Below the pieces are notes generated by a model that was not told the DNA's origin, ran no database searches, and was given only the letters and a program-made list of their open reading frames with translations. Below are positions 29,939 through 39,697 of a stretch of DNA of 64,000 nucleotides, in pieces. The stretch is from Agrobacterium tumefaciens (GTDB lineage: Bacteria > Pseudomonadota > Alphaproteobacteria > Rhizobiales > Rhizobiaceae). The translations under genes and the position numbers were made by a program. The DNA is taken from contig NZ_CP039889.1 in assembly GCF_005221325.1 (NCBI RefSeq), forward strand, positions 2,058,501-2,122,500. The letters are read 5' to 3'. Positions within the stretch are counted from its first letter, which is position 1. Each line of letters opens with the position of its first letter.

Positions 29939-31174
29939 TCACAGCGGCAGCGATTTTATCGGCTGGGAGCCGCCCTCGCGGGCACTTCTCAGCGCCGCCA
30001 CGCCACAGAGGACAGACATGGCGCCGGCGCGTGATCCTGCCCGTTGCCTCAGCCGGTCGTTGGAGCCGGGCTTGAAGATCATGTCGCGCATGCGGTTATC
30101 ACCACCATAGTGGCCGCCCGGCTCATGCGGCACCCATATGCGTTCGACGCCGCCACCGAAGCTTTTCACCAGCAGGATTTCATCGGCCGGCGGCTCCGTC
30201 CACGGCTGCTTTTCGTATTGCCGCATCTCGATGCGGCCCTTGTGGCCGTTAAAGGCGATGTGATGGCCTTCGATTGGCATATAGGTGTTCAGCGAATAGG
30301 AAACCTGCACGCCGCTGGCGTAGCGGATCGAGGCACTCATCGTATCGGGAATGTCGATCTCCTCACGGAAGACGCAGGCGTCACGCATATAGCCATCGAT
30401 GCTTGACGGGTCTTCATAGAGTGCATCAAGGAAGGGATCGGCGCCGAGATCCATGAAATAATCGCACTCACCCTGGTGCGGACAGGTGCGACAGCGCGTT
30501 CCGCGGAAGGGGCCGTTCCTGCCATAATGCAGCAATTGCCCGAAGCCCTTCACTTCCACCGGGTCGGAATCGAGATACCAGTTCAGAAGATCGAAATGGT
30601 GCGTGGCCTTGTGCACGAACAGGCTGCCGGAATGTTCGGTGAAGGCGTGCCAGCGGCGAAAGTAGTCCGCGCCGTGCTGATTATCGAGATACCAGTGGAA
30701 GTCGACCGAGGTAACCGTGCCGATGGCGCCGTCGTCGATCAGTTCTTTGATCCGCGCGGCGGTGGGCGAGAAACGGTAATTGAAGGACACATCGACACGG
30801 CGGCCGCTTTTGGCTTCCGCCGCGCGAATGCGGTCGATCTTTTCGGGGGTGGTGGTCATGGGTTTTTCACTGATGACATCGGCCCCGCCTTCCAGCGCGC
30901 GGATAATGATGTCGTCATGGGTATCGTCAGGGGTGCAGACGATCACCAGTTCGGGCCGCTGCTCCACCATCATCCGCTCGAAATCATCGTAAAGCGGCGC
31001 GCTTGATCCCATCATGGCGCGGGCGCGTTCGGCGCGCATCAGGTTCAGGTCGCAAATGCCGACCAGTTCGACATAATCGCTCCAGCCGGCCAAAAGTTCG
31101 CGGCCCCACATGGTGGTGCCGCGATTGCCGGTGCCGACCAGCGCATAACGTTTGCGTTTCAGCCTTTCAGGCAT
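29939..31174 (-). CDS. Gfo/Idh/MocA family oxidoreductase
   Basis: A 411-residue NAD(P)-dependent sugar oxidoreductase: Rossmann start RYALVGTGNRG near residue 9, EKP motif (ISEKPMTT) near 100 and the family's His in the HKATHHFD segment near 195. A TRCRTCPHQGEC segment near 240 has paired cysteines that could bind a metal, unusual for the family. I start at 31174 with GGGAGAG upstream. It is the last gene of the operon 34356-29939, with a second Gfo/Idh protein at its head. Confidence 0.87.
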   Translation of the reverse strand: MPERLKRKRYALVGTGNRGTTMWGRELLAGWSDYVELVGICDLNLMRAERARAMMGSSAPLYDDFERMMVEQRPELVIVCTPDDTHDDIIIRALEGGADVISEKPMTTTPEKIDRIRAAEAKSGRRVDVSFNYRFSPTAARIKELIDDGAIGTVTSVDFHWYLDNQHGADYFRRWHAFTEHSGSLFVHKATHHFDLLNWYLDSDPVEVKGFGQLLHYGRNGPFRGTRCRTCPHQGECDYFMDLGADPFLDALYEDPSSIDGYMRDACVFREEIDIPDTMSASIRYASGVQVSYSLNTYMPIEGHHIAFNGHKGRIEMRQYEKQPWTEPPADEILLVKSFGGGVERIWVPHEPGGHYGGDNRMRDMIFKPGSNDRLRQRAGSRAGAMSVLCGVAALRSAREGGSQPIKSLPL

Positions 31175-31193
31175 TGTCACTCTCCCGGATATC

Positions 31194-32015
31194 TCAACAA
31201 ACGGTCTTGAAACGCTCGACCACGGTGGACAGAACCTCATCCATCGGACGTGCCTGCCAGCGATGCGAAAAAATCTCCACTTCCTGCGGACCGTGGAAGC
31301 CGGCGGCCTCGATCATGGCGCGAAATGCCTTGAGGTCAATCACGCCGTCGCCCATCATGCCGCGATCATTGAGCGGATCGGTAGTCGGCACCAGCCAGTC
31401 GCAGATATGGTGCGCCAGTATCTGCTCGTTCCTGCCGGCGCGTGCCACCTGTTCTTCCAGTTCCGGGTCCCACCAAACGTGGTAGACATCGATGGCGACA
31501 CCGGTGCCGGCACCCAGCCGGTCGCAGAGATCGAGCGATTGTTTCAGCGTGTTGAAACAGGCGCGATCGGCCGCATAAAAGGGATGCAGCGGTTCGATGG
31601 CAAGCGGCACACCGGCGGCCCGCGCATAGGGCAGAAGCTCGGCCATGCCGTCCTCCACCATCTGCCGCGCGCCCTTGAGATCGCGCGAGCCGGCGGGCAG
31701 GCCGCCCACGACAAGCACGAGGCAGTCAGCCTTCATGGCGGCCGCTTCATCGACAGCGCGTTTATTGTCCTCAATGGCGAGCCGGCGGCCTTCGGCAGTG
31801 GGAGCGGGAAAAAATCCACCGCGGCAATGGCCGCTGAGGCGAAGGCCGTTCTGCTCAACGATGCGCGCGGCTTCCGTTAGCCCGACGCCGTGCACCTGCT
31901 CGCGCCAGGGCGAGATGGCGGTTATTCCATGCGCTAGGCAGGCATCAACGATCGCGCTGAAATTTCCGCCCTGCCGCACGGTGGCGAAATTGATGGAAAG
32001 GCCTTCAAGGCTCAT
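31194..32015 (-). CDS. Sugar isomerase/epimerase (xylose isomerase-like TIM barrel)
   Basis: A 273-residue TIM-barrel protein of the AP endonuclease 2 family. Metal ligands are suggested by Glu in LAIEPLHPF near 142, Asp in AIDVYHVWWD near 176, His in HICDWLVP near 205 and Glu in QEVEIFSHRW near 246. Relatives isomerise, epimerise or eliminate from keto-sugars. GAGGGAGG precedes the start. It is flanked by a Gfo/Idh gene and a DUF993 gene. Confidence 0.85.
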   Translation of the reverse strand: MSLEGLSINFATVRQGGNFSAIVDACLAHGITAISPWREQVHGVGLTEAARIVEQNGLRLSGHCRGGFFPAPTAEGRRLAIEDNKRAVDEAAAMKADCLVLVVGGLPAGSRDLKGARQMVEDGMAELLPYARAAGVPLAIEPLHPFYAADRACFNTLKQSLDLCDRLGAGTGVAIDVYHVWWDPELEEQVARAGRNEQILAHHICDWLVPTTDPLNDRGMMGDGVIDLKAFRAMIEAAGFHGPQEVEIFSHRWQARPMDEVLSTVVERFKTVC

Positions 32016-38535: not shown

Positions 38536-38623
38536 ACGGAACACGGATCGGGAACGCATTTTATAAGACCATCAACACTGTCGCCGCCGCCCTTTGCGCG
38601 GCGCGGCAGTCGGGAGAAACAGC

Positions 38624-39697
38624 ATGGCAAGCAGCATTACTCTGGAAAAAATCGTCAAGCGGTTCGGCGCTTTTCCGGTCGTTCACGGCATCGATCTGAA
38701 AATCGAGCCGGGCGAATTCACCGTTTTTGTCGGCCCCTCGGGCTGTGGCAAATCCACGCTTTTGCGCATGATTGCCGGACTGGAGGAAATCTCCGAGGGT
38801 GATCTTCGCATCGATGGCGAAAGGGTTAACGAAACAGCCGCCTCCAAACGCGGCATCGCCATGGTTTTCCAGTCCTATGCTCTTTATCCGCATATGAGCG
38901 TCTACAAGAACCTCGCCTTCGGGCTGGAAACCGCGGGCTACAAAAAACCGGAAGTCGAGGCGCGGGTGCAGAAGGCCGCCGATATCCTGCAGATCGGCCC
39001 GCTTTTGCAGCGCAAGCCGAAGGCGCTTTCGGGCGGCCAGCGCCAGCGTGTCGCCATCGGCCGGGCCATCGTGCGCGAGCCGAAAATCTTCCTCTTCGAT
39101 GAGCCTTTGTCCAATCTCGATGCCGAATTGCGCGTGCAGATGCGCGTCGAAATCGCCAAGCTGCACCAGACGCTCGGCAGCACCATGATCTATGTGACGC
39201 ACGACCAGGTGGAAGCCATGACCATGGCCGACAAGATCGTGGTCCTGCGAGACGGCCGCATCATGCAGGTCGGCCGCCCGCTCGATCTTTACAATAATCC
39301 GGCCAACCAGTTCGTCGCCGGTTTCATCGGCTCGCCGAAGATGAATTTCCTTTCTGCCAAAGTGGTTTCCGGCGACAGTTCCAATCGCACCATCGAGGTG
39401 GCCGGCCAGCGCATCGTGCTGGAAAAACCGGTTGCGGCCGGCGAAGGCGAACCACTGACCTTCGGCGTGCGCCCCGAACACGTCAACCCGCAGGCGCAAT
39501 CCTCGCTCGGCGAAGCTTCCATCCAGCTCGTGGAACATCTGGGCGGCTCGACGGTGGTTTACACCAACACCCCGGACGGCCAACCGGCCACCGTGCTGCT
39601 GGACGGCCAGCGCCAGATCCGCATCGGCGAGACCATTCCCTTTGCGTTCGATCTAGCGAAAACGCACCTGTTCGGGGCGGATGGGCGGCGGATATGA
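38624..39697 (+). CDS. ABC sugar transporter ATPase (MalK/UgpC type)
   Basis: A 357-residue ATPase with [29 protein letters not shown] and [10 protein letters not shown] in normal order, and a MalK-type regulatory C-terminus. The start at 38624 has GGGAG upstream. It completes the importer beside the TetR regulon. It could also serve the orphan binding protein at 45480, whose own unit lacks an ATPase. Confidence 0.92.
   Translation: MASSITLEKIVKRFGAFPVVHGIDLKIEPGEFTVFVGPSGCGKSTLLRMIAGLEEISEGDLRIDGERVNETAASKRGIAMVFQSYALYPHMSVYKNLAFGLETAGYKKPEVEARVQKAADILQIGPLLQRKPKALSGGQRQRVAIGRAIVREPKIFLFDEPLSNLDAELRVQMRVEIAKLHQTLGSTMIYVTHDQVEAMTMADKIVVLRDGRIMQVGRPLDLYNNPANQFVAGFIGSPKMNFLSAKVVSGDSSNRTIEVAGQRIVLEKPVAAGEGEPLTFGVRPEHVNPQAQSSLGEASIQLVEHLGGSTVVYTNTPDGQPATVLLDGQRQIRIGETIPFAFDLAKTHLFGADGRRI

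What the first reader, a model, noticed from the sequence alone, without database searches (positions are those of the whole stretch)
29939..39697. Candidate undescribed sugar pathway: two Gfo/Idh oxidoreductases, a DUF993 protein, a TIM-barrel isomerase, an ABC importer and TetR
The minus operon 34356-29939 and the plus importer 35418-39697 flank a TetR gene, and both promoters carry related palindromes, so they form one regulon. Known pathways that oxidise the 3-position of a sugar, eliminate, rehydrate and reduce it (for example levoglucosan and 3-keto-glycoside breakdown) use two Gfo/Idh proteins with TIM-barrel lyases. DUF993 has no function known to me and would fill the lyase or hydratase slot. 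The assignment of steps is inference; the gene set and arrangement are read directly.
Basis: partly seen in the sequence, partly recalled or inferred. Interest (0 to 1): 0.78.

Follow-up and report, generated by a model that had tools for sequence, protein, structure and literature searches.

The report
Sugar-catabolism regulon around uncharacterised DUF993 aldolase-like enzyme
A small set of soil-bacterium genes under one shared switch probably imports an unknown sugar-like compound and breaks it down with an aldolase-like enzyme of a large family for which no tested function was found.

The parts
29939..31174 (-). Gfo2: Gfo/Idh/MocA oxidoreductase with EKP, K-x3-H and a C-x2-C cysteine cluster; goes with the CUT1 importer type of locus
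   Evidence: in 21 of 27 CUT1 loci against 2 of 68 others
31194..32015 (-). TIM: AP_endonuc_2 (xylose-isomerase-like) barrel with an E-D-H-E metal-ligand-like pattern (pattern recalled); solved orthologue SMc04130 (3ju2), also 3qc0
32040..33203 (-). DUF993 (PF06187): divergent DapA/NAL-fold protein, invariant Lys229 in DGIK at the Schiff-base position, invariant His188 (next to Trp189) in the column of the catalytic Tyr; solved orthologue SMc04132 (4dnh)
33214..34356 (-). Gfo1: Gfo/Idh/MocA oxidoreductase with EKP and D-x3-H; the core dehydrogenase (solved relative 3oqb)
34416..34429 (.). operator 1, TAACCATTTGGTTA, upstream of the Gfo1 operon
   Evidence: same place in relatives
34602..35300 (-). 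TetR-family regulator (TetR_N + TetR_C_29); start inferred
   Evidence: start inferred from the sequence
35343..35356 (.). operator 2, TAACCAATTAGTTA, between tetR and the importer
   Evidence: same place in relatives
35418..36707 (+). CUT1 solute-binding protein; nearest named solved relative YesO (5z6b), then 2uvh (an oligogalacturonide-binding protein, recalled)
36714..37667 (+). CUT1 permease A
37660..38535 (+). CUT1 permease B
38594..39697 (+). MalK/UgpC-type ATPase (ATG at 38624 is the likelier start, from the translation)

Best explanation
A TetR-controlled (probably repressed) catabolic regulon. The CUT1 importer brings in a sugar-like compound, perhaps a uronate-containing or oxidised oligosaccharide. 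Gfo2 acts in a front-end redox step tied to that importer. The conserved core then works on a common intermediate: Gfo1 oxidises a hydroxyl to a ketone with NAD(P), the metal-dependent TIM barrel isomerises or epimerises the keto compound, and DUF993 forms a Schiff base through Lys229 and splits it by retro-aldol cleavage (less likely a beta-elimination), giving C3-level fragments, one of which becomes glycerate. The intermediate or its precursor lifts TetR from both operators. Shown: gene content, operator distribution, conservation, fold and position of the lysine. Inferred: every reaction, the order of steps, TetR binding, the substrate.
For: Regulon: two places only in the genome; same operator in 31 of 94 type I and 6 of 13 type III loci, 0 of 24 type II, 0 of 12 type IV and 0 of 6 other, with one control site in all 149. 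S. meliloti SMc04132, 33, 35, 38, 39 all in proteome module 6 (log2 -1.69, -3.65, -1.23, -1.31, -1.07 in TY medium). Fold and lysine. Core conservation: TIM in 90 of 95 Gfo1-bearing loci; Gfo1-DUF993 gap median 36 nt, at most 120 nt in 76 of 94. Gfo1/DUF993 co-occurrence 14 of 15 genomes given 48 of 151, hypergeometric P 2.8e-7, relatedness ignored. Front end: Gfo2 in 21 of 27 CUT1 loci and 2 of 68 others, GfoT2 24 of 27 and 0 of 68. Cleavage: glycerate kinase near 15 of 149 loci of types I-IV, and GMC-ALDH-Gfo1-DUF993-glycerate kinase in a row on pAO1.
Against: No biochemical datum. The DapA catalytic tyrosine and the GTTGE motif are not kept, so the chemistry may differ. Glycerate kinase is absent from the window's own locus and from 134 of 149 loci; no background rate was computed. 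In G043 (76% complete) Gfo1 and TIM are adjacent without DUF993 (L218), and L185 has a TetR-ACAD-SDR-TIM run without it. 63 of 94 type I loci lack the exact operator, and a narrower form is found in 9 of 39 DUF993 genomes of all types. Module 6 of the S. meliloti study holds many other catabolic proteins, and only 5 of the 11 genes of this locus were found there. Importers differ (CUT1, NMT1-type ABC, TctABC, MFS), so one common substrate is not certain.
Confidence: 0.5

Rival explanations
1. 3-keto-glycoside breakdown: Gfo oxidises C3, an eliminase (DUF993 through an enamine, or TIM with its metal) expels the aglycone, and another Gfo reduces the product to a sugar.
For: Two Gfo/Idh proteins and a metal-type TIM barrel with a sugar importer; Gfo1 and Gfo2 have weak similarity to levoglucosan dehydrogenase (58 and 66.7 bits); published A. 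tumefaciens operon with this logic (PMC10628242 passages).
Against: Far below the levoglucosan dehydrogenase cut-off of 650 bits; only one AP_endonuc_2 protein in the operon; 8BVK not among the four TIM matches; 46 Gfo1 loci with NMT1- or Tct-type importer parts lack Gfo2.
Confidence: 0.2
2. DUF993 is a dehydratase: Schiff-base driven loss of water from a keto sugar acid (as in other DapA-superfamily dehydratases, recalled), followed by isomerisation by TIM.
For: Same fold and lysine; an enolase-superfamily-like protein (MR) in 45 of 95 Gfo1 loci, and Tct- or NMT1-type importer parts in 48 of 95, point to a carboxylate.
Against: Does not explain the recurring glycerate kinase; MR is absent here and matches its Pfam model barely (30.3 bits, cut-off 29.4).
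Confidence: 0.2
3. Cyclitol or quinate-like ring substrate opened by DUF993.
For: After 3oqb, Gfo1's best solved matches are scyllo-inositol/L-glucose dehydrogenases; TIM weakly matches IolI; an AroE-like gene precedes DUF993-TIM in L033 and AroE-like genes pair with TIM paralogues and DapA-like proteins in L219-L222.
Against: All similarities are weak; AroE-like scores are below every curated cut-off shown.
Confidence: 0.1

Closest known systems
DapA / N-acetylneuraminate lyase class I aldolase superfamily (PF00701)
   Different: 12% identity, no PF00701 match at E 0.001, catalytic-Tyr column is His, GTTGE column run is DTAQR, 387 aa
A. tumefaciens O-glycoside beta-eliminase operon (AtOGE/AtHYD, PMC10628242, passages)
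   Same: Gfo oxidoreductase plus sugar-isomerase-like barrels in an operon of the same bacterial group
   Different: There a flavoenzyme dehydrogenase plus two isomerase-like barrels; here DUF993, one barrel, TetR, CUT1 importer
Levoglucosan operon (recalled, and as mentioned in PMC10628242 passages)
   Same: Two Gfo/Idh proteins with TIM-barrel partners
   Different: Gfo1 and Gfo2 score about a tenth of the LgdA cut-off; no second barrel in the operon
pAO1 plasmid sugar cluster of Paenarthrobacter nicotinovorans (published as an oxidative xylose pathway: recalled, paper not seen)
   Same: Gfo1 (60%) and DUF993 (50%) adjacent
   Different: Adds GMC oxidoreductase, ALDH and glycerate kinase; no TIM found within about 9 kb

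Membership tests
DapA/NAL class I aldolase superfamily | DapA TIM-barrel fold | tested here: met
DapA/NAL class I aldolase superfamily | Schiff-base lysine (G-[IV]-K; role recalled) | tested here: met
   hhalign probability 91, E 9.4e-7, K229 on the invariant A4 lysine K161; K229 invariant in 20 of 20 rows
DHDPS family PF00701 proper | Pfam match over cut-off | tested here: not met
   11 PF00701 places in the genome, DUF993 not among them; Pfam gives PF06187 only
DHDPS family PF00701 proper | catalytic Tyr and GTTGE motif (recalled) | tested here: not met
   H188 aligned to the Tyr column, DTAQR to GTTGE; a one-column shift of the alignment would put W189 there
DapA/NAL class I aldolase superfamily | covalent imine with a keto substrate | not testable with these tools
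   needs protein
Levoglucosan / 3-keto-glycoside elimination operon | Gfo/Idh proteins at equivalog level | tested here: not met
   LevoglcsnDh 66.7 and 58 bits, cut-off 650; tested for the levoglucosan enzyme only
Levoglucosan / 3-keto-glycoside elimination operon | two isomerase-like barrels (eliminase and hydratase) | tested here: not met
   one in the operon; another AP_endonuc_2 gene at 40653 lies in the next cluster
CUT1 ABC sugar importer | SBP, two permeases, MalK/UgpC ATPase | tested here: met
TetR local regulon | palindromic operators at the regulated promoters only | tested here: met
   binding itself not tested

The most novel reading that the evidence does not exclude
DUF993 founds a new class of Schiff-base aldolase that splits unphosphorylated keto-sugars or keto-aldonates. 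It would define a widespread non-phosphorylative pathway (dehydrogenase, then isomerase, then DUF993, then glycerate kinase and a CoA branch) that swaps dehydrogenases (Gfo, SDR, AroE-like), importers and regulators around one conserved lyase.
Probability: 0.35. Interest if true: 0.72.

Novelty: new variant of a known kind. Interest (0 to 1): 0.52.

Why it matters
The DUF993 protein search was cut at its 8000-candidate limit with all 8000 matching, and I found no tested function in the searches made. A precise operator, a solved orthologous structure (4dnh) and a candidate catalytic lysine make the function directly testable in a laboratory strain. If it is an aldolase of unphosphorylated keto-sugars, it fills a gap in plant-associated sugar catabolism.

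Tried and rejected
DUF993 as a structural orphan: rejected. TIM as the published eliminase: 8BVK not among its four sequence matches, so not supported. MR enolase-like protein as a universal partner: in 45 of 95 Gfo1 loci and not in the window's. Substrate from literature: SMc locus tags gave two papers, neither naming a substrate in the passages seen; SMa tags one unrelated paper; PDB codes one unrelated paper. pAO1 papers PMC6214936 and PMC10494377: the passages found held nothing on this cluster. Extra regulon members: a narrower operator pattern was found in 9 of 39 DUF993 genomes. Its places away from the DUF993 gene: G094 by a flagellar gene, G346 by an ORF without a Pfam match, G063 before ACAD-SDR-TIM, G128 in an SBP-TetR-Gfo2 locus without Gfo1, DUF993 and TIM on that contig, and G033 before another CUT1-type SBP about 14 kb from its second DUF993; these did not name a substrate. 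Mannonate dehydratase beside the Caulobacter locus L093: suggestive of hexuronates, but its start is over 600 bases from the operator, so not used. A first gene caller was misled by shadow ORFs and replaced by homology-based calling and tblastn. No sigma-70 consensus promoter near the operators.

Full report
WHAT IS THERE. The window lies in a 6.14-Mb, six-contig genome at G000:C2:2058501-2122500. The nearest DUF993 genes are of Agrobacterium: 96% to a protein named Agrobacterium genomosp. 13, 93-94% to A. tumefaciens, A. arsenijevicii and Rhizobium nepotum contigs. The minus operon is Gfo1, DUF993, TIM, Gfo2; TetR sits between it and a four-gene CUT1 importer. Pfam: DUF993 622 bits; AP_endonuc_2 135.8 bits; both Gfo proteins match the Rossmann and C-terminal Gfo/Idh models. 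Sequence motifs (meanings recalled): Gfo1 EKP and D198-x3-H; Gfo2 EKP, K189-x3-H and a C-x2-C cluster; TIM a glutamate, an aspartate, a histidine and a glutamate in the usual metal-ligand contexts.

ONE REGULON. TAACCANNTRGTTA with one mismatch allowed gives two places in 64 kb, 0.06 matches expected. TAACYANNTRGTTA has those two places only in the genome, the reversed control 1 forward and 1 reverse match. Over 149 DUF993 loci it is found in 31 of 94 type I, 6 of 13 type III, 0 of 24 type II, 0 of 12 type IV and 0 of 6 other loci: 50 sites against one control site. In the 118 loci scanned first, sites lie mostly between SBP and TetR or before Gfo1, also in the Erwinia, Caulobacter, Marinobacterium and Pseudomonas loci. 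These loci are not independent, and 63 of 94 type I loci lack a site of this exact form. In S. meliloti, SMc04132, 33, 35, 38 and 39 are in proteome co-expression module 6 of PMC12542648 (passage; parts 1 and 2 of section 17, with the table header). That module holds many other uptake and catabolic proteins, so the link is weak by itself. SMc04132 is DUF993 (4dnh title) and SMc04130 is TIM (3ju2); the other tags I map by gene order in L031. So the refutation 'no shared expression of the two arms' is answered, weakly, in a relative, not in this strain.

CONSERVED CORE. First set: 118 loci with DUF993, 95 with a Gfo1 hit, 90 of those with TIM. Full set with Gfo1 at 55% identity or more: 149 loci, 94 type I (Gfo1), 24 type II (LacI and CoA-transferase, with a distant Gfo, ECH and mostly ALDH), 13 type III (SDR and TIM; CoA-transferase in 9), 12 type IV (GMC and SDR of another type), 6 other. 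The type labels are my own rules; some loci mix types (L138, L152 and L201). The set holds near-duplicates (L035 and L153; some genomes under both a name and a handle). TIM is near in 89 of 94 type I. Gfo1 and DUF993 are 36 nt apart at the median, at most 120 nt in 76 of 94, maximum 2244.

EVENLY DRAWN SAMPLE. Of 151 Rhizobiaceae genomes DUF993 is in 48, the Gfo1 ortholog at E 1e-100 in 15, 14 of them with DUF993 (hypergeometric P 2.8e-7, which ignores relatedness). TIM at E 1e-50 is in 30; the 15 with 56% identity or more are the same 15 genomes. G043 is the exception: Gfo1 and TIM adjacent, no DUF993; it is 76% complete. Of the 34 DUF993 genomes without the Gfo1 ortholog, 22 have a type II locus. 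Across 398 genomes of the phylum, DUF993 is in 36. A tree of 117 DUF993 rows keeps Gfo1-linked rows clustered (4 changes against 14.4 in shuffles); near-copies contribute to that.

FRONT END AND IMPORTERS. Among 95 Gfo1 loci, Gfo2 is in 21 of 27 with the CUT1 importer and 2 of 68 without; GfoT2 24 of 27 and 0 of 68; the enolase-like MR in 7 of 27 and 38 of 68. Other importers are NMT1-type ABC and Tct parts and MFS. I read this as a core that handles an intermediate reached from different starting compounds; that is inference. The window's locus lacks MR and the GfoT pair.

CLEAVAGE OR ELIMINATION. A glycerate kinase of either tested family lies within 9.5 kb of DUF993 in 15 of 149 loci, in types I to IV, two of them near-identical plasmids; e.g. 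GMC-ALDH-Gfo1-DUF993-glycerate kinase on pAO1 and Gfo1-DUF993-TIM-glycerate kinase in Paracoccus. No background rate was computed. L201 joins type II and type IV genes in one run, which suggests variants of one pathway. A keto-compound that yields glyceraldehyde, hydroxypyruvate or tartronate semialdehyde on retro-aldol cleavage would feed glycerate kinase; this is inference.

SUBSTRATE CLUES, WEAK. The binding protein is nearest YesO and 4r6k, then 4ovj and 2uvh. The window holds a pectin-type island at 11.2-25.3 kb and a second cluster with a homologous binding protein at 40.7-47.9 kb. A uronate-related or pectin-derived compound is therefore my leading guess, at perhaps one in three.

COMPARISON. 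PMC10628242 (abstract, outline and passages) describes an A. tumefaciens four-enzyme system for 3-keto-glycosides with a flavoenzyme, two isomerase-like barrels and a Gfo. Ours differs in gene content. Papers holding 'DUF993' in the library searched: 0.

VERDICT. Observation confirmed; regulon well supported; pathway type open. A well-defined, testable regulon around a large unassigned family, ordinary in kind (sugar catabolism) but with an unassigned central enzyme.

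Noticed in passing
window 11228-25346: Pectin/galacturonate-type island: DHDPS-family gene, MR_MLE, amidohydrolase, TRAP DctP/DctM, CUT1-type SBP, GH28, GH88.
   Followed up: partly
window 40653-47896: Second sugar cluster: AP_endonuc_2, D-2-hydroxyacid dehydrogenase, DUF2264, LacI (minus 44303-45307), a binding protein homologous to the first and an HTH regulator. In several Rhizobium loci (L045-L047, L063, L069, L071) parts of it lie beside the DUF993 locus on the other flank. 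No paper in the library holds DUF2264.
   Followed up: partly
L220 (G000:C3:238000-257000) 7221-10962: Same genome: DapA-like protein, AroE-like dehydrogenase, TIM paralogue (40%) and aldo/keto reductase near CUT1-type importer genes; similar trios in L219, L221, L222. An analogous module with another lyase and dehydrogenase.
   Followed up: partly
L034: The most divergent DUF993 of the 20-row alignment (40%), near a type I polyketide synthase and beside a mycofactocin-coupled SDR on a Streptomyces plasmid.
   Followed up: no
L188-L196, L198-L209, L213: Type II DUF993 locus (LacI, distant Gfo/Idh, CoA-transferase, enoyl-CoA hydratase, mostly ALDH) is the commonest DUF993 setting in the Rhizobiaceae sample (22 of 48 genomes) and looks like another pathway without a name.
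   Followed up: partly
L032, L140, L145, L210: Type III: acyl-CoA dehydrogenase next to SDR, DUF993 and TIM, with ETF genes in L032 and L145; odd for a sugar operon, and 6 of 13 type III loci carry the same TetR operator.
   Followed up: partly
L079 and other Bradyrhizobium loci; L142: A glyoxalase/dioxygenase-like gene (cluster c17, 15 loci) before the TetR of many Bradyrhizobium-type loci; a gene annotated ring-cleaving dioxygenase also beside TetR in Chelatococcus L142.
   Followed up: no
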